From: Salisediminibacterium beveridgei
Lineage (GTDB): Bacteria > Bacillota > Bacilli > Bacillales > Salisediminibacteriaceae
Direction: 5' to 3'
DNA length: 64,000 bases
NCBI RefSeq assembly: GCF_001721685.1
Contig: NZ_CP012502.1
Location: 2,914,001-2,978,000, forward strand
Below the pieces are notes generated by a model. That model was not told the DNA's origin and did no database searches. It saw only the letters and a list, made by a program, of their open reading frames with translations. Shown here piece after piece: positions 50,154-63,813 of this stretch (position 1 is its first letter; the number at the start of each line of letters is the position of its first letter). The position numbers and the translations under genes were made by a program.

Positions 50154-50179
50154 GCCGCCCATTGATTTTGATGGGCGGC
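50154..50179. terminator. Bidirectional terminator between ydiK and the respiratory operon
   Basis: GCCGCCCAT/ATGGGCGGC stem with T-rich tails on both strands. It marks the border between the conserved ydi block and the inserted respiratory genes. Confidence 0.8.
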
Positions 50180-50209: not shown

Positions 50210-50815
50210 TCACACTTCGTCTTCGATCAACAGGTGTGCTGACTGGACCAAATCGCGATAAAAGCCACGTATCATGCGCGTGGAGACCTCTTTTTCAAAG
50301 TCCCCGAACATGGGCCTCAGGTAATCCTCCAGCATCACTTCGTACATCGCCTCTGCTTCTTCACGTATGGTTTCACTCTCTGCCTCAACCGACCGTTGCA
50401 ACAGATAATGCAAAAACATGAACACGGTACCGATATGGTCATGCCGCACTCCTGTTCCGTGGGCATAGTCGAGGAATCCGAACCGTTCATAACAGCCGCT
50501 CAGACTGTGAACCGCCGCATTCTGACCTTCCTTCGCGAGATCAAGATAAAAACTGACATAAGGCGGTGCATAACAGGGTCCCGGGATGAAAAAAAGATTG
50601 TCATACTGCATCTGCACTTCGTCATCGGGTGTAACCTCTAACTGATGGAGTAACTCTCGCACGTCTTCATTCATACCCTCAAGAGTTTCGCCGGTTTGAA
50701 TCAGATCATTGATCAACTCGATTTGTCCATGAAAGCAGCGGGCATAGATCAGAAACTGTAAACTATCCATCAAACGTTCTTCTTGGGTGGCATCCGCAAC
50801 CTGTGTTTTTATCAT
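50210..50815 (-). CDS. TorD/DmsD-family chaperone for the molybdoenzyme
   Basis: 201 residues, all-helical. The TorD hallmark region is present: QMQYDNLFFIPGPCYAPPYVSFYLD (compare YxxLFxxPG), and RHDHIGTVFMFLHYLL. Such proteins hold the catalytic subunit while its molybdopterin cofactor is inserted and shield its Tat signal from early export. The ATG overlaps the stop of the catalytic-subunit gene as ATGA, so the two are translationally coupled. Last gene of the operon. Confidence 0.88.
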   Translation of the reverse strand: MIKTQVADATQEERLMDSLQFLIYARCFHGQIELINDLIQTGETLEGMNEDVRELLHQLEVTPDDEVQMQYDNLFFIPGPCYAPPYVSFYLDLAKEGQNAAVHSLSGCYERFGFLDYAHGTGVRHDHIGTVFMFLHYLLQRSVEAESETIREEAEAMYEVMLEDYLRPMFGDFEKEVSTRMIRGFYRDLVQSAHLLIEDEV

Positions 50816-53800
50816 GCTTTGGACACCTCCACTTTTGCGTAAAGTTGCGCTGCCGATCCTCCAATCGGGTCAAACAGGCTGCTGTTACCGAGTGTGCTGT
50901 CGATGCTCAACAGATTATTTGCTGAAAAGCCCGTGTCACGGCCTTTCGCGTATAAGCCGGATTCTTTTTTCGGGGCGGCAAACTCGTAACTTGTGTGACC
51001 ATATTCTGCGCCCGCACCGGACCATTTACCGTCTATCTTGATTGGCTGGGAGCGAAATGCAGTATGACCGAAGTTGTAGCTCGAGCCGACAACGCCTGGA
51101 CGGATCCCTTCCGTTACCATAATTCGGCCCTCTGCTTCATAATCACTGCCTTTGATCTTAATCGTATCGCCATTTTTCAATCCGCGTTTCTTCGCGTCGA
51201 TGCTGTTCATCCAGAGCGGATTATCTTCACGGACTTCACGGAGCCAAACGTTACTGACTTGTCTGTGCGTACCGATATGCTTCGCTTTCCAGTTTGTCAT
51301 CACAAGCGGTAAATCACGCTCGTAGACGGTTTCGTCATATTCTTTAATTTGTTCATGGATTGGAACCCCGCTGTGGAATTCACCGCTGAATGAATGTTTA
51401 TTGCGCGCCGTGATTTCATCATAGAAGTTTGTCTGACCACCGTACTGATATTTAACGTGTTTGCCGTCATTGATATATTCTTCACCCGGTGCTTCAAAAC
51501 GTCCCCCACGGTTTAACATATAGACAACTTTCGGCCATTCTTCCGGGGTAACCGCCCTTTTCAAGCGATCAATGTCGAAAAATTCACCAAGTGCTTTCTT
51601 CCTGGCATTCTCGAAAATTGCCATTTCCTCAGCGTCGGCATCCGGAACCGCTTCGTCCTTCATGGCGATGTTAGCTGCCATCTTCGTGTAGTATTCTTCG
51701 TAACTGTTGAGCTTATCTCCGTTCGCAAAGGCGTTTTCCCCAACGCCCGGCAGATCGAGTCGTTTCGCCAGATCGATAAACACGTCTTCCACCGCTCTTG
51801 CTTCCGGAACAACCCGGGTAACCGGCTGCATGATACTCGACAATCGGTGCAGCTGATTCGGATAAATCGTCTGCTGGCCGTAACGCTCGAGATACGTCAA
51901 GTCCGGCAAAACATAGTCAGATACCTGAGCCGCTTCGCCGACGGTAATGTCGAGGGAGACGAGCAGCGGGATTTTCGATTCATCCTGAAGTACTTCCCGG
52001 TTTTTATAACCGGTTGAAAATGAGAGAATCGGATCCATGCGGTAGACAAACAGCGCCTTCAAGTGATAAGGATATCCCTCATCTGCACTTGGGATCACCT
52101 CATGAGATGAGTTTCCGGTTGTGCCGAACCATGGACGTAAGGCCGGATAGCCGCCGTCGCGCTCAAATAAGGTGCTCTGTTCATATTGCGACTGTTTACG
52201 GGTAATCGGAATGCCCCAAGGTTTTCTGGCGTTTGGAACCGTGTCCAAATCATACGCGCCGTCCCAAGGTCCGAAGTTGGCTCCTGAAGAGATACTGCCG
52301 CCTTTCCAGTCGTAGTTCCCGATGAGGTGATTGAGCAGATTCATCGCCCGTACACTGTAATAGCCGTTTGTATGCATCGCATTACCGCGGTAACCGAAGG
52401 CGGCTGCCTTTTTACCATGCGACGTGAATTCCCGGGAGACGTCTTCGATCATGCTTTTTTCGATACCTGTGATCTCCGCATATTCCTCCAGGCTATGTTT
52501 CATAACTTCCTCTTTATATAACAGGAAGCTTGATTTGACTTCAATTCCATGGACGGATGTGTCCACTTCCAGATCCGCTTCATCAGCGTCTTCAGAAGCA
52601 TGAGGAACACCGTTTTTCAGGACAACATAGTCGTCATCGTCGCCTTCTTCACGAAGTCCGAGCTCTGAGGCACGGAGTTTCTGACGGGTCGCCTCGCTAA
52701 CCTTCACGAGATGAGTCGCATCGCTCCAAGTCGGCTCATCGTCTGCTTCTGCTGCGGCGCGGTTCGGATTCGTCAAATACGTCTTGTCATAGCGTTCATT
52801 TTCGATAATCCAGCGGCCCATCGCCAGTGCAAATGCTCCGTCTGTTCCAGGAATAATCGGTACCCATTGGTGGGCTTTTTCAACGGTTTTGGACATTCGC
52901 GTGTCGACAACGGCCATTTTCATCCCGCGCTCAATTGCATTGGTAATCTGAGGTGCCATCCACGTCGGTCCCTTATTGGCAACCAGGGGATTCGTTCCAA
53001 AAGCGATCATGTATTCAATATAGTCGATATCGGTGTAGGTACGTCGTTTGCCGTGTTCAAAGGAACGGACATTGCCGATCACCGAGCTCACACCGCATAC
53101 CCCGCCATGGTCATCAAAGTTATTACTGCCAAGACCTTGCGTCCAGATGCGGGTGTTGGTAAAATGCCTGCGGTCGCCACCCAGGCAGGCGACCTGATTC
53201 ACTTTCGGTCCGAAATCCGGGTGTTTCGTATCGATCAGTACGTCCTTGTATTTCGCATCGAAATCTTCCTGTGTCATCGCGCCTTCTTTGACCTGCTCCC
53301 AGTCGGCCATGACGACTTCCTCTTCCTCGTACACCGCAAGCTCTTTTAACCCTGGTGTACCAAGATCAGGGCTGCCTTCTACGATTTCTTCATACGCCTG
53401 CTCCCAAGAGATCGTCTTCCATTTTCCGCTGCCTCTCGGACCAACGCGCTTCATCGGCTTTTTCAAACGGTACGCATCGTAGGCGGTTTGAATTCCCGCC
53501 TGTCCTTTCAGGCATGTCCGGCCACCGCGCAAACCCCGTCCGGCAACGGCTACGCTGCCACCGCCAAGAGCCGCGTCGGCGGCAGGTTTAGCATAGTCAA
53601 TTTGGCCAATCGGCTTCATCGTAAGCGGGCTGTATGGGTTCCCGGCGATTTTACGCACAAGAGATGTACAGCCACCCTCGATCTTTCCTTCTTTCACATA
53701 GGCCTTGATCGTACAGTGCGTATTGCACTGCTCACACGTTGTATAGATGACGTTTTCCGCCGTATAGTCCTCAGTGAATGCGCCGATGCCATGTGCATCA

Positions 53801-53940
53801 TCTGCCCAGACGTTTCCGCCGGTAATCTGGCGGACCGGGCTGCCGAAAAACGGTGAAGCAACAGCTATCGCACTGAGGATCCCCGCACCTTTCACAAACG
53901 AACGGCGGTTGACTTTATTTTCAAATACAGATTTACTCAT
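50812..53940 (-). CDS. Tat-exported molybdopterin oxidoreductase, catalytic subunit (TtrA/SrrA-like)
   Basis: 1042 residues of the DMSO-reductase family. A Tat signal (VNRRSFVKGAGILSAIAVA, twin Arg at 12-13) is followed by a [4Fe-4S] site (Cys69, 72, 76 and 143). The Mo ligand is probably Cys282 in DDHGGVCGVSS. The cofactor-binding C-terminal domain begins near 890 (RDLPLVMTNWKAKHIGTHRQ). Its length fits tetrathionate reductase TtrA and the respiratory selenite reductase rather than PsrA (about 750) or ArrA (about 850). The gene order Fe-S, NrfD, catalytic is that of ttrBCA. It overlaps the NrfD gene by 8 bp. Acts outside the membrane as a terminal reductase; the substrate (tetrathionate, selenite, or other S, Se or As oxyanion) is not determined. 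Confidence 0.88.
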   Translation of the reverse strand: MSKSVFENKVNRRSFVKGAGILSAIAVASPFFGSPVRQITGGNVWADDAHGIGAFTEDYTAENVIYTTCEQCNTHCTIKAYVKEGKIEGGCTSLVRKIAGNPYSPLTMKPIGQIDYAKPAADAALGGGSVAVAGRGLRGGRTCLKGQAGIQTAYDAYRLKKPMKRVGPRGSGKWKTISWEQAYEEIVEGSPDLGTPGLKELAVYEEEEVVMADWEQVKEGAMTQEDFDAKYKDVLIDTKHPDFGPKVNQVACLGGDRRHFTNTRIWTQGLGSNNFDDHGGVCGVSSVIGNVRSFEHGKRRTYTDIDYIEYMIAFGTNPLVANKGPTWMAPQITNAIERGMKMAVVDTRMSKTVEKAHQWVPIIPGTDGAFALAMGRWIIENERYDKTYLTNPNRAAAEADDEPTWSDATHLVKVSEATRQKLRASELGLREEGDDDDYVVLKNGVPHASEDADEADLEVDTSVHGIEVKSSFLLYKEEVMKHSLEEYAEITGIEKSMIEDVSREFTSHGKKAAAFGYRGNAMHTNGYYSVRAMNLLNHLIGNYDWKGGSISSGANFGPWDGAYDLDTVPNARKPWGIPITRKQSQYEQSTLFERDGGYPALRPWFGTTGNSSHEVIPSADEGYPYHLKALFVYRMDPILSFSTGYKNREVLQDESKIPLLVSLDITVGEAAQVSDYVLPDLTYLERYGQQTIYPNQLHRLSSIMQPVTRVVPEARAVEDVFIDLAKRLDLPGVGENAFANGDKLNSYEEYYTKMAANIAMKDEAVPDADAEEMAIFENARKKALGEFFDIDRLKRAVTPEEWPKVVYMLNRGGRFEAPGEEYINDGKHVKYQYGGQTNFYDEITARNKHSFSGEFHSGVPIHEQIKEYDETVYERDLPLVMTNWKAKHIGTHRQVSNVWLREVREDNPLWMNSIDAKKRGLKNGDTIKIKGSDYEAEGRIMVTEGIRPGVVGSSYNFGHTAFRSQPIKIDGKWSGAGAEYGHTSYEFAAPKKESGLYAKGRDTGFSANNLLSIDSTLGNSSLFDPIGGSAAQLYAKVEVSKA

Positions 53941-55219
53941 GTGAATTCACCTCATCTTCGTTTAGTTCAAGGGGAAGAAATTTTGCGCCAATCGAATAAA
54001 TCAGCAGCCCCATCGCAACCACGCCGATTGAGCTCAGCCATTCCACCCAGTTCGGGAAATAAAATGCATTGGGCAGTTCTTTCATGGATTGTACGATCTG
54101 TGTTGGGACAACGATGTTAAAACGGACGCCGATAATGCCGATCACAACCATAATTGCAGCTGCTGTAAGCCAACCCGTTGACTGGTTGAAGCGTTTGTTA
54201 AACAGAATAAAGATGGGAAGAACGGCTCCGATAAACAGCTGCACGCCCCAGAATGACCAGGCCATCGGTCCGGTGAACATTACGTTTAAAATCGCCAATT
54301 TTTCAGGTTTCATCGTTAACCCGGCAACAAGGAATTCATAAAATTCAAGGCCGAGGTCAATGATTAAAAAGGCGATCATCAGCATGGAGAGGCTCTTTAC
54401 CATTCCGAAATCCACATCTTTTCCCCGGGCTTTTTGCTGAATGACATACATTGCAATTAAAAGGGCCGTTCCGGAAACGAGTGCGGAGACAACGAAGATC
54501 ACCGGAAACAAAGGGGAGTTCCAGTACGGCTGAGCCGCAACCGCGGCAAACAAGGTGCCTGTTCCGCCGTGAACACCGATAATCGCAATCGGAATGCCGA
54601 GAATCCCGAGTATTTTCATCCAACGGTGGTCTTTTTTCTTGGCGTTATCCGACGAATCATCACTGCCGAGTCGAATGGCATTGGCGACTTTGCCTTTCAT
54701 CCCCTGATCTTCTTTTGCGAGGCGAATGAGGTCGATCCGCATCGCGAACCAGAGTTCTACGGCAAGGAGGACCATATATACCAGGTAAAAACGGACTTCA
54801 TAAGAGAGAACACTGAGTGCGTTCCAATACGTCATCGCATTCAACGCCCGGTCCATCCGCCCAAGATCCAGGGCGATAAAGGACAGGGCAACGATCATGG
54901 AGACTAGTGCGGTAAATAAGGCATAGCGCCCGACGCGTTCATACTGTTCCATTCCGAAAACAAAGATCAACGTTGACAGCAGGAAGGCTCCTGCGCTGAG
55001 TCCGACAAAAAAGATATAAAAAGCTACCCACGCTCCCCATGGAACGAATGTCGATAAGTTCGTGACGCTCAGTCCTTCCACCATCCGGTATATAATTGCC
55101 CCGCCACCTGCGATCAATGCAACGAGGAGGGAAAGCATCCAGATTCGAAAGCGTTTTCGCACGATTTGAGGATCCAGTTCTTCGCGGGCATGTTGTGTTG
55201 GTTGTGACATTTCACTCAT
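53933..55219 (-). CDS. NrfD/PsrC-family membrane subunit (quinol oxidase)
   Basis: 428 residues with about ten membrane helices. The family motif region is clear: VPWGAWVAFYIFFVGLSAGAFLLSTL near 60-85 and MTGPMAWSFWGVQLFIGAVLPIFILF-like sequence near 310-330. It would take electrons from menaquinol and give them to the Fe-S subunit, without haem. A hydrophilic loop of about 30 residues (DQGMKGKVANAIRLGSDDSSDNAKKKDH) separates the two halves and is longer than usual (TtrC/PsrC are about 320-340). GGAGG precedes the ATG by 7 nt. Confidence 0.88.
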   Translation of the reverse strand: MSEMSQPTQHAREELDPQIVRKRFRIWMLSLLVALIAGGGAIIYRMVEGLSVTNLSTFVPWGAWVAFYIFFVGLSAGAFLLSTLIFVFGMEQYERVGRYALFTALVSMIVALSFIALDLGRMDRALNAMTYWNALSVLSYEVRFYLVYMVLLAVELWFAMRIDLIRLAKEDQGMKGKVANAIRLGSDDSSDNAKKKDHRWMKILGILGIPIAIIGVHGGTGTLFAAVAAQPYWNSPLFPVIFVVSALVSGTALLIAMYVIQQKARGKDVDFGMVKSLSMLMIAFLIIDLGLEFYEFLVAGLTMKPEKLAILNVMFTGPMAWSFWGVQLFIGAVLPIFILFNKRFNQSTGWLTAAAIMVVIGIIGVRFNIVVPTQIVQSMKELPNAFYFPNWVEWLSSIGVVAMGLLIYSIGAKFLPLELNEDEVNSHE

Positions 55220-55236
55220 TCGATTAACCTCCTTTT

Positions 55237-56097
55237 TCAGCGTAAGTAATAGACACGTGGTTCTGTGCCATACTCTTCTTTTAAGCGGAATGCGCGACTG
55301 TCTGAAGCAAGCTTTGCGACCGTTGATTCCGGATTGTTCAAATCACCGAAGTATCTTGCATCGCCTATGCATGTCTCCACGCAGGCAGGCTCTTCGCCGC
55401 GCTCCAGCCGGTGAAAGCAGAAGTTGCATTTACGCACGGTTCCGATCGGTGCTTCCCCGCTGCCCCGCTCACCACGTTCCATACCGTGCTCCGGTGCCTG
55501 CATCAGATTGGCACCCAGTATTTCTTCGTACTCCTCACCAAAGTCAAAACTCCTCGCGCCGTATGGACAGGCTACCATGCAGTACCGGCAGCCGATGCAG
55601 CGATCGTTATCCTGAACAACAATCCCGTTATCGGCTTTATACGTTGCGCGAACCGGACAAACGGAAGCACAGGGCGGCTTGTCACAGTGCATGCAAGGTC
55701 TCGCGATATTCGTTCTCGATACATTCGGAAATGTCCCTTCTTCTTCAACGAACACCTGGTTATAGGACACACCAGGAGGTGTCAGATTCTCCGCTTTACA
55801 GGAAACCGTACACGTCTCACAGCCGACGCACTTACGGAGATCGATCACCATGCCCCATTTGACGCTGCTGTGATCCTGACCTGCAGCCGCTCTGACTTCA
55901 AGTTTCTGATTGAATTCTTTACCGACTGATTCCTGGTATTTATTTACGAAATCTTCTTCGGTGATGTGCCCATCGGATAATCGTCTGGCGTCCTCAGCCA
56001 TATTCAAACCGAGATCGGTGCTGTAAACAGATTGACTTAAAATATCTTTGCCGGCGAACAGCGTTTGATTGATTAATGAATCATGTTTCAGTGCCAT
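55237..56097 (-). CDS. Four-cluster Fe-S electron-transfer subunit (TtrB/DmsB-like)
   Basis: 286 residues. Sixteen cysteines in four groups can bind four [4Fe-4S] clusters: CVGCETCTVSC (from 90), CMHCDKPPCASVCP, CIGCRYCMVACPYG and CNFCFHRLERGEEPACVETC. It relays electrons from the NrfD subunit to the molybdenum subunit. An N-terminal extension of about 80 residues without a signal peptide precedes the first cluster, which is absent in DmsB; it probably rides out with the Tat-exported partner. The start MALKHDS follows AAGGGGG, and the longer frame is not needed. Confidence 0.9.
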   Translation of the reverse strand: MALKHDSLINQTLFAGKDILSQSVYSTDLGLNMAEDARRLSDGHITEEDFVNKYQESVGKEFNQKLEVRAAAGQDHSSVKWGMVIDLRKCVGCETCTVSCKAENLTPPGVSYNQVFVEEEGTFPNVSRTNIARPCMHCDKPPCASVCPVRATYKADNGIVVQDNDRCIGCRYCMVACPYGARSFDFGEEYEEILGANLMQAPEHGMERGERGSGEAPIGTVRKCNFCFHRLERGEEPACVETCIGDARYFGDLNNPESTVAKLASDSRAFRLKEEYGTEPRVYYLR

Positions 56098-56110
56098 CGT
56101 ACAGACCCCC

Positions 56111-56290
56111 TTATGATTTTGATTCTTCCTCTTTGTCTTCTTCACTTGTCAGTTCTTTGGTGGATTTCTTGAATTCCTTTAACGTATCCCCTACGGCACG
56201 TCCCATCTCCGGCAGTTTTTTCGGGCCAAAAATGATCAGCGCAATGACCAGGATTAATACAAGTCCCGGTATCCCGATATTTGATAACAT
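56111..56290 (-). CDS. tatA: TatA-type twin-arginine translocase subunit
   Basis: 59 residues: a short outer N terminus, one membrane helix, the [26 protein letters not shown] amphipathic helix and an acidic tail. It forms the pore part of the Tat system. The start [10 protein letters not shown] lies 8 nt after AAGGAG. First gene of the sigma-54 operon, 13 bp before the Fe-S gene, so it is made together with its Tat-dependent cargo. No tatC is in the window; in B. subtilis the pair tatAy-tatCy occupies this chromosomal place. Confidence 0.9.
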
Positions 56291-56333
56291 GTTCATCTCT
56301 CCTTTAGCTATTGGTTTTCTTACGTTTACTAAA

Positions 56334-56350
56334 TGCAAGAAGCATGCCAA
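56334..56350 (-). promoter_or_regulatory. Sigma-54 (-24/-12) promoter of the tatA-respiratory operon
   Basis: On the minus strand TTGGCATGCTTCTTGCA, with GG and GC 10 bp apart, differing from the acoA promoter only in the spacer. Transcription should start near 56322, about 32 bp before the tatA start. The NtrC-type regulator encoded just upstream is the matching activator. Confidence 0.9.
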
Positions 56351-56358
56351 CACAAAAA

Positions 56359-56391
56359 GCGCACGCATATTTTAAAGAAATATGCGTGCGC
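56359..56391 (-). terminator. Terminator of the sensor-regulator operon
   Basis: Perfect 14-bp arms (GCGCACGCATATTT / AAATATGCGTGCGC) with a 5-nt loop and a T5 run on the minus strand. It insulates the sigma-54 promoter, whose -24 box starts 9 bp further on. Confidence 0.85.
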
Positions 56392-56499
56392 ATGACTGAA
56401 AAATCCTGTTAGAGCAAGGATTTCATCTTTATTCGTTTTTCTCTTGCTTTCTATTCCCGTTTGTTACCGGCTGAATATCTGCCGAGGGTCTGTGCCATT

Positions 56500-56536
56500 T
56501 TGTCAGCTTTGTCATGAGAACGTTGACAAAATGTCA
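56500..56536 (-). promoter_or_regulatory. Candidate enhancer site: cluster of TTGTCA repeats
   Basis: TTGTCA occurs at 56500 and 56509, its complement TGACAA at 56524, and ATGTCA at 56531; ATTTTGTCA and TGACAAAAT also form a 9-bp inverted repeat. It lies about 190 bp before the expected start site, a good distance for an NtrC-type activator, and runs into the end of the regulator gene. Confidence 0.5.
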
Positions 56537-57883
56537 TTCTGAATTTTTTTCAAGCTGGTGCTGTTCAATCTTCCTGTAAATATTGCGTACGCTGATGCCT
56601 AGAATCCCGGCGGCTTCGGATTTGTTCCAGTCCGTATGAGTCAGTACGCTGTCGATATGGGTGCGCTCCACTTCCTCCAACGTCCTGAGCGGATCGCAGC
56701 CATCATCTTGCTTCGAGGCCTGACGGGTCCCGCCCGGCAACATCAGATCCGCCGCTTCAATCTCATTATGGGGCGAGAGCAGACAGCCCCGCTCGAGAAT
56801 ATGCATCAATTCACGAATATTCCCGGGAAAATCATACCGGATCAGTTCATTCATGGCGTGTTCCGTCAGCTGTCTCTGACCCGACTGCTTCAAAAAGAAA
56901 TCAACCAGTAAAGGAATATCCTCTTTTCGCTCCCTCAAAGGCGGAACGTCAATGATCATCACCTGCAGCCGGTAAAACAAATCTTCTCTGAAACGCCCTG
57001 CTGCCGCTTCCTCTGATAAGGAACGATTCGTTGCCGCCACGACTCTGACCTGGATGGCACGTTCCCTGGTTTCACCCACTCGTCTGAATGTCCCTGTTTC
57101 GAGAAAGCGCAGCAGCTTCACCTGCGTATCCTTCGGCATCTCACCGATTTCATCGAGGAACAGCGTGCCCCCATCCGCCGCCTCAACGAGACCTTTTTTC
57201 TCTTTTTGCGCACCTGTAAAGGCCCCTCTGGCATGGCCGAAGAGCTCACTTTCAATCAGCTGTTCAGGGATCGCCCCCGAATTCACCGCTATGAATGGTT
57301 CAGCCGCCCGTTTACTCCAGTAATGCAGCCCTTTCGCCACCAGCTCTTTACCAGTGCCGCTCTCTCCTTCAATCAGGATCGAAGCATCGGCATCCGCGAC
57401 CCGGGCTGTCAGATGCTTCACCCGTTCGATCGCTGCGGAACGCCCGACGATGTCAAAATCCTTTTCTTTGGCGTGGAGCAGACTGCGCATCGTCTGATTC
57501 TCTTCGGAAAGCTTTCTTTTTTCCAGCGCTTTCGCGATCACCACTTCAAGTTCGGCCAGATTATAAGGCTTTGTCAAATAATCATAGGCTCCCTTTTTCA
57601 TGGCATCGATCGCCGTTTCCATCGTTCCGTGGCCGGTCAGCATGATCACTTCGACATCCATCATTTCCTGGCGCCTCTTCACGTTCTCAAGCAACGTCAA
57701 ACCATCCATCGGCTCCATACGGATATCAAAAATACCGATATCAAATGATTCCTTCTGCAAAAGGGTCATCGCCTCCTCGCCGGAAGCGGCACCCTTTGCA
57801 TCAAATCCTTTTCGCTTCAACCGGCTGACAAGCAGCTCCCTCAAGTCCTTCTCATCATCCGCAACAAGTATACGGTGCATCAT
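56534..57883 (-). CDS. NtrC-family sigma-54-dependent response regulator
   Basis: 449 residues: receiver (1-120) with phospho-acceptor Asp53 (GIFDIRMEPMDG) and DYLTKP; AAA+ ATPase (about 143-375) with Walker A GESGTGKE, GAFTGA and TLFLDEIGEMP; and a Fis-type helix-turn-helix at the C terminus (NKSEAAGILGISVRNIYRKI). After phosphorylation by the adjacent kinase it should activate the sigma-54 promoter at 56334-56350. Its ATG follows the kinase stop codon without a gap. Last gene of the MFS-binding protein-kinase-regulator operon. Confidence 0.93.
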   Translation of the reverse strand: MMHRILVADDEKDLRELLVSRLKRKGFDAKGAASGEEAMTLLQKESFDIGIFDIRMEPMDGLTLLENVKRRQEMMDVEVIMLTGHGTMETAIDAMKKGAYDYLTKPYNLAELEVVIAKALEKRKLSEENQTMRSLLHAKEKDFDIVGRSAAIERVKHLTARVADADASILIEGESGTGKELVAKGLHYWSKRAAEPFIAVNSGAIPEQLIESELFGHARGAFTGAQKEKKGLVEAADGGTLFLDEIGEMPKDTQVKLLRFLETGTFRRVGETRERAIQVRVVAATNRSLSEEAAAGRFREDLFYRLQVMIIDVPPLRERKEDIPLLVDFFLKQSGQRQLTEHAMNELIRYDFPGNIRELMHILERGCLLSPHNEIEAADLMLPGGTRQASKQDDGCDPLRTLEEVERTHIDSVLTHTDWNKSEAAGILGISVRNIYRKIEQHQLEKNSE

Positions 57884-59953
57884 TCATTCCTCCATCTGTC
57901 TGACATTCTTCAGATTTCCCGCCTGGCCCGGAAGGCGGATCCGGAACGTGGAACCTTGTCCGACTTGACTCTCGACTTCCATCGTTCCCTTCATTTGTTG
58001 CACGATGCCGTAACAGACGGACAAGCCCAGCCCGGTTCCTTTCCCTGTCGGTTTCGAGGTGAAGAAGGGATCGAACAATTTGTCAAAATCGGTCTGCGGG
58101 ATTCCTGTGCCGTTGTCATGAACTTCCGCAACGACTTCTCCTGCTGCTTGAAAGAGCCGGATCGTAAGGGTTCCTTCCTCTTTGTCCGCTATCGCATCGA
58201 TCGCATTCTGGATCAGGTTCACAAATACTTGGGAGAGCTTCATGGCATCTCCGGTAATCAACGGCATGTCCGTTTCTTCATCGACATGCACCTGAACACC
58301 GGATTTTTTCAAGGAATGATCCATCAGCATCAGACTGTCGTCAGCAACTTGCCTGATGTTCAAATGCGTGTCTTGCCAATGCTCTTTCCTGGAGAAATTC
58401 AGAAGGTTTGCGGTGATGGTTTTGCATCGGTCGATATTCTTACGGATAATGGACAGATAATGTGCCATGTCGCCACTATCGAGCAATTCCTGCTGATTTC
58501 CCGTCAACCGGTCACTGAGATCTTCAGCATACACCTGAACCGATGCCAGTGGATTATTGACCTCATGGGCAAAGGATGAAGCCATGAGTCCGAGGGCGGA
58601 CAATTTATCTGTCTGAATGATTTTCTCCTCCATCAGTCTCTCTTCGGTAATATCCTCCATCACAATCAAAGCTTCTTCATCTTGTTCCAATGTATACTGC
58701 AAAGGGAACACCCGATGCCGGTAAACCCTTTCCTGACCTGTCTCGTCGGTCCGCGTGAGTACTTCATCCATTTTCTCAAAAGGATTTGTTTCACCCAGCG
58801 GGCACGAATAACAAGGGGTATCTGAATCGTTAAAGAGCTTGAAACAAGGCACTGTTGTTTTTTCACCAATCCAGCCCCGGAGCTTCGGATTCAGCCAGGC
58901 AATGGAATAATCTTTACGGACCACCGCGAGACCGGCATCCATCGAGTTCACTACTATATCGAGGCGTTCTTTTTCCTGACGGAGGCGCTGTTCTTTTTCC
59001 TGTATGGTTTCATTCATTTCGTTAAATGATTCCGTCAGTTCACCTAACTCATCACTTCGTTCCACGGGCATCGTTTCCGGCCTGTCATCAGTCTTCATGC
59101 GGAGCATTCCCCGCTGAAGCTGCTCGATCGGCTTGACGAAATAAAGACCGGCAAAGACGCTGATCACACTGCCAAACAGGATCATCACCGTTGCAGTGAA
59201 GGCTCCCCGGCGCATCATATCAAAAACCGGGGTCATCGCTTCCCTTCTCGGCTGGTCCATCACCAACTCCCAATCCACTTCGTCAATGGCTGTCCGCATA
59301 TGAATCCCGTCTTCGATTTCATCCACATCCGACTGCCAGAGTCGTGAGTAATCCTGATGGGCAATGATCTGTCCTGTGTGATCCTGAAGGTAAATGACCG
59401 TTTCATCATTGAGCTGATACGAAGACACGCTGCCAATCAATTTTTGCAGCTGTACCGACGCACCGATGTACCCACCGTCCCCATAGGACGTTACCATTTG
59501 CAGATACGGCTGACCGTAATCATTAAAGAGAACCTCAGACAAATTTGTTCCGTCAGGTTCCAAGGCATCTCCTTGGAACCAGCTGGTTCCTGTCCTTCGA
59601 TGATTCAGGGCATTTCTCGCAATTTCAGAAGACACCATTCCTTCTGCATCAAGCATCACCAAAGAATCGATCGCTGGCATGGATCGAAGGACTTCATAAA
59701 AAGCACCCTGATCATTCTCCGGCTGATCCAATGCTGCGAGGATATCCAATTGATGCGTCACCTGCCGGATATCTGAACGGATATCTCCGGCGAGGTTATG
59801 AAGACGCATCTCCTGGATTTCCTCGCTGGTACTGCCTACATAATCAGTCAGATCCGTCAGATAGTATACGGATATCAAAACCAGAGGGATAATCGTCATC
59901 AAAAAACCGAACAAAAGGACTTTTTGCCGGACGGAACGAAATTTATTGCGCAT
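57884..59953 (-). CDS. Sensor histidine kinase with extracytoplasmic Cache-like, HAMP and PAS domains
   Basis: 689 residues from the ATG at 59953, which has GGGAGG before it; the longer frame lies inside the upstream gene. Two membrane helices (about 10-32 and 265-288) frame a Cache-type outer domain. HAMP (about 290-340) and PAS (about 345-445) domains follow, then a HisKA domain with phospho-acceptor His near 464 (SSFAHEVNNPLASVQ) and an ATPase lobe (NLIQNAIDAI; GTGLGLSV). The PAS contains the cysteine motif C-x10-CYSCP near 368, which may hold metal or sense redox. Overlaps the binding-protein gene by 11 bp, so the two probably sense the respiratory substrate together. Confidence 0.92.
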   Translation of the reverse strand: MRNKFRSVRQKVLLFGFLMTIIPLVLISVYYLTDLTDYVGSTSEEIQEMRLHNLAGDIRSDIRQVTHQLDILAALDQPENDQGAFYEVLRSMPAIDSLVMLDAEGMVSSEIARNALNHRRTGTSWFQGDALEPDGTNLSEVLFNDYGQPYLQMVTSYGDGGYIGASVQLQKLIGSVSSYQLNDETVIYLQDHTGQIIAHQDYSRLWQSDVDEIEDGIHMRTAIDEVDWELVMDQPRREAMTPVFDMMRRGAFTATVMILFGSVISVFAGLYFVKPIEQLQRGMLRMKTDDRPETMPVERSDELGELTESFNEMNETIQEKEQRLRQEKERLDIVVNSMDAGLAVVRKDYSIAWLNPKLRGWIGEKTTVPCFKLFNDSDTPCYSCPLGETNPFEKMDEVLTRTDETGQERVYRHRVFPLQYTLEQDEEALIVMEDITEERLMEEKIIQTDKLSALGLMASSFAHEVNNPLASVQVYAEDLSDRLTGNQQELLDSGDMAHYLSIIRKNIDRCKTITANLLNFSRKEHWQDTHLNIRQVADDSLMLMDHSLKKSGVQVHVDEETDMPLITGDAMKLSQVFVNLIQNAIDAIADKEEGTLTIRLFQAAGEVVAEVHDNGTGIPQTDFDKLFDPFFTSKPTGKGTGLGLSVCYGIVQQMKGTMEVESQVGQGSTFRIRLPGQAGNLKNVRQMEE

Positions 59954-60947
59954 CGAGGACACCTCCCTGTTCTGAGGGTACCGGTTCTGCGAGGCGCAAA
60001 ATGTCTTCATTGAGCGTGACTCCAAGTTCCCTCGCCACATCGTCATTGACGTGAAACAACAACTGATCCGGCAGCTCCACCGGCAAATTTTCCGGGTCAT
60101 TTCCAGAAAGAAGCATGCTCACCTGACGGGCTGCCTGGTACCCCTGATCGTAGAATGACGAGCCGTAGCTCATTAGAAAACCAGCCGATGCTTCGTCATC
60201 GTATATCCCCATCAGGGGAACGTCTTTTGCCATCGCAAATTCCGCCAGTTCACCGGTCATCCCTTCGATCACAAAACTCGGTAACGTCATCAGACCGGTG
60301 TTCGGTCCGAGCACTCCGTTCAGTGCTTCAGCGTCAAAAACGTCACCGACGTCAAAGGCCAATGCATTGATTTGTAATTCGTCCGCTGCCTCCAACGCCA
60401 TGGCCAGCGACCGTTCACTGATATCAATCGATGCATTATACAATAAGACAACCGCTTCAAGCTCCGGCAGGGCATCGGTGAATAATTCCACACGCTTCGC
60501 TGAGAGGCTCAGATGATGGTTGGCAATGCCTGTGAACTGGCCGCCAGGTGCTTCAAAACGCTCAATTATGCCCGTTTCCATCGGGGCTGCCATACCGACG
60601 AATACCACAGGCGTATGACTCTCTGTACCATCCATTGCCTCTTGGAGGACCTGCGTCTCGATTCCTCCGAAAGCCGTAATCAAATCATAATCCGCATGCA
60701 CCAGATCTGTTGCGACCGACAAAAGCAGACCAGGATCTTCCTCTTCGTACACATGAAATACCACATCATCGTCGGCAAAACCGAGATCTGCCAGACCATC
60801 CTCTATACCCGTAAGTTTCTCCATCCGGCTGCTTTCGGTGACAAGCACTCCGATTTGTGCCGGTTCTTCGGCCTGGCTGTTTTCAAAAATCAAGAACCCG
60901 ATGATTGCCATAACCATGAGTCCTGTCATTACTGATGCCGTGCGCAT
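59943..60947 (-). CDS. ABC-type substrate-binding protein without transporter (sensor partner)
   Basis: 334 residues of the ABC_sub_bind type (PF04392-like): an N-terminal membrane helix or signal (about 5-25) without a lipobox, then two Rossmann-like lobes (IGVLVTESSRMEKLTGIEDGL..., VVFVGMAAPMETGI..., VVLLYNASIDISERS..., VPLMGIYDDEASAG). No permease or ATPase gene is nearby, and its stop overlaps the sensor kinase start. It most likely presents a ligand to the kinase, as TorT or AioX do in other three-component systems. The ligand is not known. Confidence 0.85.
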   Translation of the reverse strand: MRTASVMTGLMVMAIIGFLIFENSQAEEPAQIGVLVTESSRMEKLTGIEDGLADLGFADDDVVFHVYEEEDPGLLLSVATDLVHADYDLITAFGGIETQVLQEAMDGTESHTPVVFVGMAAPMETGIIERFEAPGGQFTGIANHHLSLSAKRVELFTDALPELEAVVLLYNASIDISERSLAMALEAADELQINALAFDVGDVFDAEALNGVLGPNTGLMTLPSFVIEGMTGELAEFAMAKDVPLMGIYDDEASAGFLMSYGSSFYDQGYQAARQVSMLLSGNDPENLPVELPDQLLFHVNDDVARELGVTLNEDILRLAEPVPSEQGGVLDAQ

Positions 60948-60965
60948 CGCGTGTCCCCCCTCCTG

Positions 60966-62375
60966 TCAGTCTTTCACCGTCTGTTTGTATTCACGTCCCA
61001 GTTTAAACCCTAACGGGACAGCCACCAGCGTTAATACCGCCAAAACGATAAAAGCTTCATTGATGGCGGTCAGACTCGCCTCCTGCAAGTCACCACCGCC
61101 ATTCACAAGAATCTGTGAACGCCGGACTTCGAAATAGATCGATACAAACACGATTCCGAGCGCCGAGCTCATTTGCCGGACGACATTCCCCATTGCCGAG
61201 CCGCGGGAAATCAGTTTTTCCGGAATGGAATTCATCCCTGCGGTTGTCGCAGGCATATTACTGAGACCCATCCCGATCCCCCGGATCCCGTTTAACAAAA
61301 AGACGAACCAAAGCGCTGTTTCCATTGTCAAAAAGCCAAGGGCGAACGTGGACACACTGAGAACCATCAGCCCTCCCGCCGCTGCAATGGTCGGGCCTTT
61401 CACATCGAGCATCCGCCCACCGACATTCATGAACAACCCCATCAGTAAGGCTGACGGAAGAAAGCTCAGGCCGGTCATGATCGCGCCGTAGCCGTATACC
61501 GTCTGGATCAACAGCGGAATCAGAAAGATCCCCCCGAACAGGCTGACAGAACCGATCATGGCGATGAGTACACTGTATGTATACGCCTTGATTCTGAAGA
61601 TGGAGAGATCGAGCAGGGGCTGGTCCTGCCTGGCTTCAATCCGCACAAAGAACCAGAGTGAGAACACGCCAACTGCAATGAGTGTCAGGTTGAGTGCATT
61701 GTAGAGATGAGCCAATTCGTTGATCCGACCCAACGCAAACAAGATCGAGCCGACACCGATCGTGACCGTGACAAACCCAGGTTTATCGAGACGGATATCC
61801 GTTACCCGCTTCGTTTGCGAGAGAAATCGGATGGAAAACAAAATCGCCAATAGTCCTGTAGGGATGTTTACAAGAAAGAGCCATTGCCACGATCCCAGTT
61901 CCACCAGGAGACCGCCCAACGTTGGTCCAATGGTCGGGGCAAGCATCGCAGCGACACCCCACACGCCTGTCGCCAGTCCCCGCTCCTCCCGGGGAAAAGC
62001 ATCGAAGATCAGGACCATGGAGAGCGGCATGATCATGCCGCCACCCACACCTTGAATGGCTCGAAAGCCGATCATCGCACTGATGTCCCAGGAAAAGGAC
62101 CCCAGCACTGAACCGGTCACAAACAGCATCAAGCCTCCTATATACACTTGCTTTTTTCCGAATTTATCGGCAAGATAGCCCGTTAACGGCATGGACATCC
62201 CCATGGCCACCATAAAAATCGTGATGACCCAGCCCGCACTGACGGCATCCGCGTCAAACAGATTCATAAAATAAGGTATGGCAGGATTCAGCATGCTGTT
62301 ATTTAAAATTACCGTAAAGGTACCGGTTAATACCGTAATGACAACCAGCCATTTATTCGGTATGCGATTGAACAT
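60966..62375 (-). CDS. MFS transporter, DHA2 (EmrB/QacA) family, 14 helices
   Basis: 469 residues with 14 predicted membrane helices. Typical motifs: motif A GYLADKFGKKQ after helix 2, motif C-like GVAAMLAPTIGPTLGG in helix 5, and LNNSMLNPAIP in helix 1 (LD-type in this family). It exports a compound in exchange for protons. Only 18 bp separate its stop from the binding-protein gene, so it is probably the first gene of the sensor operon; it may remove a toxic substrate or product of the respiratory enzyme, or be a generic drug pump. Confidence 0.85.
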   Translation of the reverse strand: MFNRIPNKWLVVITVLTGTFTVILNNSMLNPAIPYFMNLFDADAVSAGWVITIFMVAMGMSMPLTGYLADKFGKKQVYIGGLMLFVTGSVLGSFSWDISAMIGFRAIQGVGGGMIMPLSMVLIFDAFPREERGLATGVWGVAAMLAPTIGPTLGGLLVELGSWQWLFLVNIPTGLLAILFSIRFLSQTKRVTDIRLDKPGFVTVTIGVGSILFALGRINELAHLYNALNLTLIAVGVFSLWFFVRIEARQDQPLLDLSIFRIKAYTYSVLIAMIGSVSLFGGIFLIPLLIQTVYGYGAIMTGLSFLPSALLMGLFMNVGGRMLDVKGPTIAAAGGLMVLSVSTFALGFLTMETALWFVFLLNGIRGIGMGLSNMPATTAGMNSIPEKLISRGSAMGNVVRQMSSALGIVFVSIYFEVRRSQILVNGGGDLQEASLTAINEAFIVLAVLTLVAVPLGFKLGREYKQTVKD

Positions 62376-62425: not shown

Positions 62426-62482
62426 CCTTGATATCTATCTATCATACCATAATCACGAACTAAAATGGCAGAGACAGAAGAA

Positions 62483-62510
62483 GAGCACCCGGCGCTTTTG
62501 CCGGATGCTC
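62483..62510 (-). terminator. Terminator of moaC-rex
   Basis: GAGCATCCGGC/GCCGGGTGCTC stem (one G-U pair) directly after the rex stop, followed by a T-rich but broken run. Confidence 0.65.
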
Positions 62511-62517
62511 TGAGCTT

Positions 62518-63153
62518 TTAATTGAGTGGATAATGCTTGAGGAAATAGATGAGGGATTGCAGTTCAACAGACAGATCAATATGGTGCACACGGATATTAT
62601 CCGGTACGGTCAATCTTGCCGGAGTGAAATTCAGGATGCCTTTGATACCGGATTCCAGCAGTTGATCTGTGATGCCCTGTGCGGCCATGGACGGCACAGT
62701 GAGAATCACCACTTCAATGTCTCCGAGTTTTTCCTCCATATCATCGAAATGATAAATCGGCACATCACCAATCGTCTGATCCACTTTCGAGCGGTCGACA
62801 TCAAACGCCATTTCAATTCGGGTATTATTACTCTTACTGAAATTATAATTCAAAAATGCCGTACCCAGATTACCGACACCAACCAGTGCCACTTTCGTCA
62901 GCTCATCCTGATCCAGCGTTTTCCGGAAAAAGGACAGGAGATAGTTGACGTTATAACCGTAGCCTTTTTTGCCTAAAGCTCCAAAATACGAAAAATCCCT
63001 GCGGATCGTAGCCGAATCCACCTTCACCGCTTCACTGAGTTCACTTGAGGACACGCGGTGTTTTCCCGATGCCTGAAGCCCTTCGAGAAACCGGTAATAC
63101 AGCGGGAGCCGTTTTGCAGTTGCCTGTGGTATCTTTGCCTGATCTACTTCCAT
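62518..63153 (-). CDS. rex: Redox-sensing transcriptional repressor Rex
   Basis: 211 residues: winged-helix domain (about 5-75; [17 protein letters not shown]...[26 protein letters not shown]) and Rossmann domain (about 80-200; [16 protein letters not shown]) that senses NADH/NAD+. Rex represses fermentation and respiration genes when NADH is low. The ATG at 63153 is preferred to an upstream TTG; GGAGG lies 10 nt before. Follows moaC by 24 bp, as in B. subtilis. Confidence 0.95.
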
Positions 63154-63177
63154 TTCTACACAACCTCCGTTCAGCAA

Positions 63178-63663
63178 TTATCCTTCTCTTTTGAAATCGC
63201 CACTCTTACCGCCGGTTTTCTCCAGCAGGTACGTTTCACCAATCACCATGCCTTTATCAACGGCCTTGCACATATCATACACCGTCAATGCGGTAGCGCT
63301 GGCTGATGTTAACGCTTCCATCTCGACGCCTGTACTGCCTTTGGTTTTCACAGCCACCCGGATGTTCAGACGATGCGACGGCTTTTCTTCCGTCCAGTCA
63401 AACGCAATGTCCACACCGCTGAGTGACAGTGGGTGACACATTGGAATGATCTGTGCCGTATTTTTCGCAGCCATGACTCCGGCTACCTGCGCCACTGCCA
63501 GTACGTCCCCTTTTTTCATGGCACCCTGGCGAACAGCTTCATAAATGTCATTGTTCACTACTACACTTGATACCGCAACGGCGGTCCGGACCGTTTCATT
63601 CTTGTCGGAGATGTCAACCATCTTCGCCCGGCCCTGTTCATTAAAATGGGTAAATGAATCCAT
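63178..63663 (-). CDS. moaC: Cyclic pyranopterin monophosphate synthase MoaC
   Basis: 161 residues. Together with MoaA it converts GTP to cyclic pyranopterin, the first step of molybdenum cofactor synthesis. Family motifs: [46 protein letters not shown] and [23 protein letters not shown]. The start [11 protein letters not shown] follows GAGGAGGG. First gene of moaC-rex; the cofactor is needed by the molybdoenzyme 10 kb away, though this gene order also exists in B. subtilis without it. Confidence 0.95.
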
Positions 63664-63813
63664 CGCATACCCTCCTCGTATTCTTCCACTATTGTACACT
63701 ATTTTTTCACAAACTGCACATATTATTCCGGAAAAGTTGCCACTGACAAAGGAATTCATGTACACTTACGTTGTGAATCAACAAGAAGACGAGCGAATAA
63801 GGGATGAACAATC

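What the first reader, a model, noticed from the sequence alone, without database searches (positions are those of the whole stretch)
50210..62375. Self-contained, ligand-sensing sigma-54 respiratory module of unknown substrate
The sequence shows a regulatory operon (MFS pump, orphan binding protein, sensor kinase, NtrC-type regulator) next to a terminator and a near-consensus sigma-54 promoter that reads into tatA, Fe-S, NrfD, 1042-residue Mo subunit and TorD. The gene order Fe-S/NrfD/Mo and the length of the Mo subunit fit tetrathionate reductase (ttrBCA) and the selenite reductase class. Salmonella TtrR is a LuxR-type regulator, so sigma-54 control with a separate binding protein is a different wiring. 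The electron acceptor could be a sulfur, selenium or arsenic oxyanion.
Basis: partly seen in the sequence, partly recalled or inferred. Interest (0 to 1): 0.85.

Follow-up and report, generated by a model that had tools for sequence, protein, structure and literature searches.

The report
Sensor-switched tetrathionate-reductase-like respiratory operon
A bacterium, probably from a salt lake, carries a compact gene set in which a sensor outside the cell appears to switch on a molybdenum respiratory enzyme related to tetrathionate reductase; the same unit recurs in many other Gram-positive bacteria, so its unknown electron acceptor can now be tested.

Summary
In detail: from 62375 down to 50210 (minus strand) lie MFS, an orphan PF04392 binding protein, a kinase, an NtrC-type regulator, a terminator, a near-consensus sigma-54 promoter, tatA, Fe-S, NrfD, a 1042-aa Mo subunit and TorD. 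New here: (1) a paired 13-bp operator, TGACA-N3-TGTCA, just downstream of the regulator gene. A script found the pair in 24 of 26 related loci that have the regulator upstream, and in 0 of 5 with no NtrC-type regulator. (2) The Mo subunit lies in a well-supported third clade of the TtrA/SrdA family: not canonical TtrA, not the selenite-reductase class. I know of no characterised member, but could not identify SrdA with certainty. (3) In Desulfosporosinus and Paradesulfitobacterium the same sensor family is wired to enzymes of the canonical TtrA clade. A thionate, probably tetrathionate, is therefore my first guess for ligand and substrate; selenate or tellurate is the main rival. The wiring resembles AioXSR/ArxXSR but uses another class of binding protein. 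Verdict: a real, conserved, new variant of a known kind. The wiring rests on comparison, the substrate on inference; nothing was tested at the bench.

The parts
60966..62375 (-). EmrB/DHA2-type MFS transporter; found beside the sensor genes only in close relatives
   Evidence: (MFS in 6 of 34 sets, one of them a partial distant match)
59943..60947 (-). PF04392 binding protein (X): N-terminal helix, no cysteine, type I binding-protein fold, no ABC partner beside it
   Evidence: AlphaFold pLDDT 92.2; nearest 3lft
57884..59956 (-). Histidine kinase (S): probable dCache sensor domain, HAMP, HisKA, HATPase
   Evidence: dCache 22.5 bits, below its 45 cut-off; 63.7 bits in homologue L149
56534..57883 (-). 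NtrC-type response regulator (R): receiver, sigma-54 activator, Fis-type HTH
56524..56536 (-). Operator 1 TGACATTTTGTCA, overlapping the stop codon of R
56493..56505 (-). Operator 2 TGACAAAATGGCA
56359..56391 (-). Terminator hairpin between regulator and promoter
56334..56349 (-). Sigma-54 promoter TGGCATGCTTCTTGCA
   Evidence: rpoN present, (sequence level only; no expression data)
56111..56290 (-). tatA (59 aa)
55237..56097 (-). Fe-S subunit B (286 aa), no twin-arginine signal
53933..55219 (-). NrfD-type membrane anchor C
50812..53940 (-). Mo catalytic subunit A (1042 aa): twin-arginine R12 R13, Fe-S C69 C72 C76 C143, expected Mo ligand C282
50210..50815 (-). TorD-type chaperone
62482..62511 (-). 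Terminator-like hairpin between rex and the MFS gene
50154..50179 (.). Hairpin after the TorD gene (listed by the scan on the + strand only)

Best explanation
A dedicated three-component switch runs a quinol-linked reductase outside the membrane. The tethered type I binding protein (X) binds the electron acceptor and docks on the dCache domain of the kinase (S); S phosphorylates the NtrC-type regulator (R); R binds the operator pair TGACA-N3-TGTCA and drives sigma-54 RNA polymerase at the -24/-12 promoter into tatA-B-C-A-D. TorD matures subunit A; the Tat system exports A and carries B along; NrfD passes quinol electrons through B to the Mo site. Most likely acceptor and ligand: tetrathionate or another polythionate. 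Shown here: gene content, promoter, operator and their conservation, clade membership, sharing of the sensor family with TtrA-clade enzymes. Inferred: ligand binding, X-S docking, phosphorelay, operator binding by R, export of B with A, substrate. I hold the wiring at about 0.85 and the thionate guess at about 0.5; the figure below is for both together.
For: Wiring: promoter and operators stand at matching places in related loci (59 operator sites in 33 loci against 2.9 expected; pair in 24 of 26 loci with NtrC upstream, 0 of 5 with no NtrC-type regulator; 14 of 14 loci with X-S-R in a phylum sample). Two of the three TGMCAWWWTGKCA sites of the genome are this pair. X, S and R distances follow those of the Mo subunit (Mantel r 0.83-0.89, n = 21, 0 of 999 permutations). 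[quoted passage not shown] Thionate: the same sensor family, with sigma-54 site and operators, adjoins enzymes of the canonical TtrA clade; ten of eleven signature residues of X are in 19 of 19 clade-C-linked and 3 of 3 clade-A-linked sensors; clade-A-linked sensors lie among the others in a tree. The gene is in 21 of 21 Mesobacillus genomes, which suits a common acceptor better than a rare one.
Against: The enzyme misses the TtrA model (432 of 1750 bits), forms its own clade, and groups weakly with clade B (85/83), which holds an SF-1/Desulfuribacillus pair, rather than with TtrA. Paradesulfitobacterium keeps both modules, each with its own sensor, which suggests two ligands. X differs consistently between the two groups at eight positions. 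Some signature residues (K151, mostly R152, Y261, G94) also occur in distant PF04392 proteins of unknown role, so they are not specific to this sensor. Extra operator-like sites without a sigma-54 site exist in relatives. L016, L121, L194, L196 and L200 keep operators with no adjacent regulator. No expression or binding data.
Confidence: 0.45

Rival explanations
1. Same wiring, but the acceptor is selenate or tellurate: clade C is a selenate-reductase (SrdBCA-like) line.
For: S. beveridgei and S. selenitireducens are listed as selenate reducers (PMC11944866, passages). The order B-C-A is that of SrdBCA (recalled from Kuroda 2011; not held). B+C grouping 85/83. PMC12016495 (passages) reports SrdABC hits in a Mesobacillus MAG enriched on selenate.
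Against: The SF-1-like genome G404 has a second, clade-B copy that is the better SrdA candidate (own three-gene unit, no operators). PMC11944866 attributes selenate reduction in these species to nap and ser genes (passages). 21 of 21 Mesobacillus genomes carry the clade-C gene.
Confidence: 0.25
2. Same wiring, but the acceptor is arsenate or antimonate.
For: The family holds an alternative arsenate reductase (PMC7331816, PMC10100899, passages); a distant member lies beside arsABCD on a Citrobacter arsenatis plasmid.
Against: The genome has a separate ArrA-type gene; no ars gene recurs near clade-C loci.
Confidence: 0.1
3. X senses an organic ligand, such as an amino acid, and the reductase answers to a general metabolic state rather than to its own substrate.
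For: The nearest structures are the L-Trp binder 3lft and relatives.
Against: Eleven conserved sensor residues all differ from 3lft. The operator pair points to a single target operon in this genome.
Confidence: 0.12
4. Promoter and operators are chance patterns and the operon is read from another promoter.
For: Nineteen matches to the loose sigma-54 pattern exist in the genome; L010 and L138 lack both elements and have other regulators.
Against: Joint conservation across Bacilli and Clostridia and joint absence in 5 of 5 loci with no NtrC-type regulator.
Confidence: 0.04

Closest known systems
AioXSR / ArxXSR / ArrXSR (arsenic Mo enzymes)
   Same: Separate extracytoplasmic binding protein, kinase and response regulator controlling a respiratory Mo enzyme; NtrC/AtoC-type regulator in Aio, Arx and epsilonproteobacterial Arr (PMC5908839, passages)
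   Different: AioX is a class II, PhnD-like protein with a binding cysteine; here PF04392, type I fold, no cysteine; other Mo family, other phylum
TtrSR-TtrBCA (tetrathionate reductase)
   Same: Gene order B-C-A, large Cys-type Mo subunit, NrfD anchor, related family
   Different: TtrS has a fused PF12974 domain and TtrR a LuxR-type HTH; subunit A lies in another clade; no twin-arginine signal on B, which PMC2500031 gives as a mark of the Ttr clade (passages)
SrdBCA (selenate reductase of Mesobacillus selenatarsenatis SF-1)
   Same: Order B-C-A, same superfamily (PMC7331816, passages)
   Different: Which SF-1 copy is SrdA is unsettled; the likelier one is clade B without operators
TorTSR (recalled; not looked up)
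   Same: A binding protein and kinase control a Mo respiratory enzyme
   Different: Regulator of another type, not sigma-54 dependent (recalled)

Membership tests
[quoted passage not shown] cysteine Mo ligand | tested here: met
   50 rows apart from 5 outgroup rows, SH-aLRT 99; C282; ligand rule from PMC7331816, passages
Canonical tetrathionate reductase TtrA | Passes the NCBIfam NF011567 cut-off (1750 bits) or lies in the TtrA clade | tested here: not met
   432 bits; E. coli plasmid TtrA 2075 bits; separate clade 100/100
Canonical tetrathionate reductase TtrA | Order B-C-A | tested here: met
Canonical tetrathionate reductase TtrA | Twin-arginine signal also on subunit B (PMC2500031) | tested here: not met
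   Sequence of B has no twin-arginine start; criterion from passages
Canonical tetrathionate reductase TtrA | Reduces tetrathionate | not testable with these tools
   needs an enzyme assay
SrdBCA selenate reductase | Closest to SrdA of strain SF-1 | tested here: inconclusive
   SrdA accession not available; two candidate copies in G404
SrrA selenite reductase | PsrA/PhsA-type enzyme of about 80 kDa (recalled from Wells 2019; PsrA/PhsA/SrrA lineage in PMC7331816, passages) | tested here: not met
   the genome's Srr-like gene is L085:2455-4671, 738 aa
ArrA arsenate reductase | NCBIfam NF041714 cut-off 1600 bits | tested here: not met
   124.7 bits; the genome's own ArrA-type protein scores 1064.6
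AioXSR-type three-component system | Separate binding protein, kinase and regulator beside the Mo genes | tested here: met
AioXSR-type three-component system | PhnD-like class II binding protein with the binding cysteine | tested here: not met
   PF04392, type I fold, no cysteine
Sigma-54 dependent operon | -24/-12 promoter, upstream operators, cognate AAA+ activator, rpoN in the genome | tested here: met
   promoter activity itself not testable here

The most novel reading that the evidence does not exclude
Clade C is a respiratory line of Bacillota (also found in haloarchaea) whose sensor, operator and enzyme travel together and which reduces a thionate or chalcogen oxyanion not yet assigned to any enzyme of this family; PF04392 sensors of this kind are a new class of extracytoplasmic receptors for inorganic anions that has been re-wired between two clades of Mo enzymes.
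Probability: 0.25. Interest if true: 0.8.

Novelty: new variant of a known kind. Interest (0 to 1): 0.58.

Why it matters
It gives an operator, a promoter, a sensor residue pattern and a clade marker for a respiratory enzyme line with no characterised member known to me, found at 52% identity or more in 22 of 398 evenly drawn Bacillota genomes, the window's included. Because sensor and enzyme travel together, binding assays on the small sensor could reveal the substrate of the large enzyme. The link of the same sensor family to TtrA-clade enzymes is a natural rewiring experiment, and the operator offers a reporter for sulfur, selenium or tellurium oxyanions in Gram-positive bacteria.

Tried and rejected
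Selenite-reductase class: rejected. ArrA: rejected. Substrate from linked genes: the neighbour clusters seen in 3 or more of 34 sets (33 loci plus the window) that are not module genes are rex, moaC, groEL/groES and an Rce1-like gene of close relatives, an ABC ATPase (4), another response regulator (4), a solute-binding-like protein (3) and two clusters that look like wrong-strand frames (7 and 3); none points to sulfur, arsenic or selenium by what I could tell, and most were not scanned by a family library. Further targets of the regulator: the third TGMCAWWWTGKCA site of the window's genome (L146), and the extra sites looked at in two relatives (L145, L147), have no sigma-54 site scoring 21 or more within 1.2-2.9 kb; other extra sites in relatives were not looked at. 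Description in print: searches gave none in their listings; PMC6615313 (outline, passages, section 7 with its table of 39 sigma-54 activator groups of Clostridiales) lists no Mo reductase, and passages of PMC12316311 show none. The library is open-access only. The fold of the kinase sensor domain could not be predicted. Which SF-1 copy is SrdA could not be settled: Kuroda 2011, Wells 2019 and Kambara 2024 are not held. Where the Pyrobaculum arsenate reductase falls was not tested.
Full report
What is there. On the minus strand, read from 62375 down to 50210, lie an EmrB-type MFS transporter, a PF04392 binding protein, a histidine kinase and an NtrC-type regulator; then, after a terminator hairpin, a sigma-54 promoter, tatA, an Fe-S subunit, an NrfD anchor, a 1042-aa Mo subunit and a TorD chaperone. 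Rex and MoaC lie upstream beyond a terminator-like hairpin, Rce1-like and GroEL genes downstream. The window is part of a 3,582,268-base single-contig genome. The closest listed protein is 91% identical, from Salisediminibacterium selenitireducens. I infer S. beveridgei; this is not proven.

Promoter and operator. TGGCATGCTTCTTGCA (56334-56349) has the GG/GC spacing of sigma-54 promoters; 1 of 500 shuffles reached its score. Between the regulator's stop codon and the terminator lie two 13-bp palindromes, TGACATTTTGTCA and TGACAAAATGGCA. Of four TGACANNNTGTCA sites in the genome only this one has an A/T-only centre; of three TGMCAWWWTGKCA sites two are this pair. In 33 loci scanned, 59 sites (at most 2 mismatches in the arms) were found upstream of the best promoter match, against 2.9 expected from shuffles. 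Twenty-six of the 33 have the NtrC gene upstream (in the two Mesobacillus loci one more gene lies between); 24 of these show two or more sites. L013 shows one. In L012 the script chose a wrong promoter; the pair and a sigma-54 site are visible in the sequence and were found by script in the same stretch (L187). L010, L020, L123, L138 and the clade-B locus L115 have no NtrC-type regulator upstream and show no site; their best promoter scores are 17-19. L010 has an OmpR-type regulator instead. L016 and L121 keep operators without an adjacent regulator.

Phylum sample. Of 398 Bacillota genomes drawn evenly, 32 have a relative of the Mo subunit at E <= 1e-100, and 22, the window's included, are at least 52% identical. 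I fetched upstream DNA for 20 of the other 21; G569 was left out because a call takes 20 stretches. L201 was too short, and L191 and L194 are cut by a contig end. Of the remaining 17, 14 have binding protein, kinase and NtrC directly upstream, and all 14 carry an operator pair (at most 2 mismatches each) and a sigma-54-like site scoring 19 to 23 of 23. L196 and L200 keep operators without an adjacent sensor set; L199 has neither. A score of 19 is also reached by chance sites in loci without the system.

The enzyme. The Tat motif, four Fe-S cysteines and the expected Mo-ligand cysteine are present. The best curated model is TtrA at 432 bits, far below its cut-off of 1750. Trees give three clades in the TtrA/SrdA family: A (E. 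coli plasmid TtrA, Azospirillum, Pseudomonas, Desulfosporosinus TtrA-like), B (G404 second copy, Desulfuribacillus, Moorella second copy, Chloroflexi, Rokubacteria, others) and C (window, other Bacillota, haloarchaea). Each has 100/100 support in the careful tree; B+C 85/83. I know of no characterised member of C. In Mesobacillus 21 of 21 genomes carry a close relative of the clade-C copy (one in pieces, one with a stop). G404, whose size and contig number fit strain SF-1 (PMC4319585, whole text), alone has a further, clade-B copy at that threshold. It is a three-gene unit behind what looks by eye like a terminator, without operators. I recall SrdBCA as a three-gene operon that worked in E. 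coli from its own promoter, and therefore take this copy as the better SrdA candidate; the accession could not be checked.

Sensor sharing. L008, L148, L149 and L151 carry the same type of sensor set beside a second enzyme set. In L148 and L149 its Mo subunit scores 886 and 895 bits to the TtrA model and falls in clade A, as does that of L008; in L151 the stretch I took ends before the Mo gene. The order is Mo-TorD-FeS-NrfD-SBP-HK-NtrC, with a sigma-54 site and three operators before it in L148, and one operator and a weaker site in L149. In a tree of the concatenated sensor proteins the two clade-A-linked sets lie among the clade-C-linked ones (support 86 and 99, midpoint root, quick method). 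Of eleven signature residues of the binding protein, R41 is kept in 17 of 19 and ten others in 19 of 19 clade-C-linked sensors, and all eleven in 3 of 3 clade-A-linked ones; all differ from the tryptophan binder 3lft. That they line the pocket is inference. Some (K151, mostly R152, G94, Y261) also occur in distant PF04392 proteins, and eight positions separate the two sensor groups. Paradesulfitobacterium keeps both modules, each with its own sensor: either two ligands or two thresholds for one.

Fold and sensing. The binding protein model (pLDDT 92.2) is a type I binding-protein fold nearest to 3lft, whereas AioX is class II (PMC5908839, passages). The kinase sensor is probably dCache: 22.5 bits, below cut-off, in the window; 63.7 bits in homologue L149. 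Docking as in LuxPQ is a recalled analogy. Distances of X, S and R follow those of the Mo subunit (Mantel r 0.83, 0.89, 0.84; NrfD 0.86, Fe-S 0.75; n = 21; 0 of 999 permutations).

Neighbourhood. Clustering the neighbours of 33 loci plus the window, the module's own genes are what recurs widely: Mo, Fe-S and NrfD in 31 sets each, kinase 27, regulator 24, binding protein 23, TorD 11 (some clusters may join distant paralogues). The genome's other Mo enzymes include NarG (2060 bits), an ArrA-type enzyme (1065 bits, below its cut-off of 1600) and an Srr-like enzyme (403 bits to PhsA, below cut-off), so nitrate, arsenate and selenite have candidate enzymes elsewhere.

Known or new. Sensing the substrate of a respiratory Mo enzyme by a three-component system is known (PMC5908839). 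New, as far as searches, section 7 of PMC6615313 and passages of PMC12316311 go, are the PF04392 sensor, the operator, its spread over Bacillota and its sharing between two Mo clades. The library is open-access only, so a description elsewhere cannot be excluded.

Noticed in passing
L202, L203, L204, L205 (G822, G777, G860, G718): Four TtrA-family genes (32-34% to the window's Mo subunit) have one in-frame TGA exactly at the position of the Mo-ligand cysteine C282, with a hairpin-like sequence after it by eye: probable selenocysteine members, while the table in PMC7331816 gives cysteine for this family.
   Followed up: partly
L149 1-15254 with L150; L008: Clade-C and clade-A modules lie in tandem; in Paradesulfitobacterium each has its own sensor set.
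   Followed up: partly
L148 10452-11463: The binding-protein gene beside the TtrA-like operon of Desulfosporosinus metallidurans is split into two frames.
   Followed up: no
L141 4482-10414: A TtrA-family B-C-A operon with a further gene lies beside arsABCD on a Citrobacter arsenatis plasmid: a candidate arsenic-linked member.
   Followed up: no
L115 1069-11463 (G404): Two tandem Fe-S/NrfD/Mo sets (749-aa and 1048-aa Mo subunits) near a response regulator, similar to G018 (L124); candidate srd region of strain SF-1.
   Followed up: partly
L022-L047 (haloarchaeal rows) and L143: Haloarchaea carry clade-C Fe-S/NrfD/Mo genes without the sensor set; on one Halorubrum plasmid a bacterio-opsin-activator gene lies upstream.
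   Followed up: no
L121 (Numidum) and L200 (G824): Foreign-looking genes or repeats separate the regulator from the promoter by more than 5 kb, yet operators remain.
   Followed up: no
window 62518-63765: rex and moaC lie directly upstream of the module, also in three relatives.
   Followed up: no
G000 C1 1606891-1608159 and 796340-797965: Two further Mo oxidoreductase genes of the window's genome have one in-frame TGA each: possible selenoproteins.
   Followed up: no
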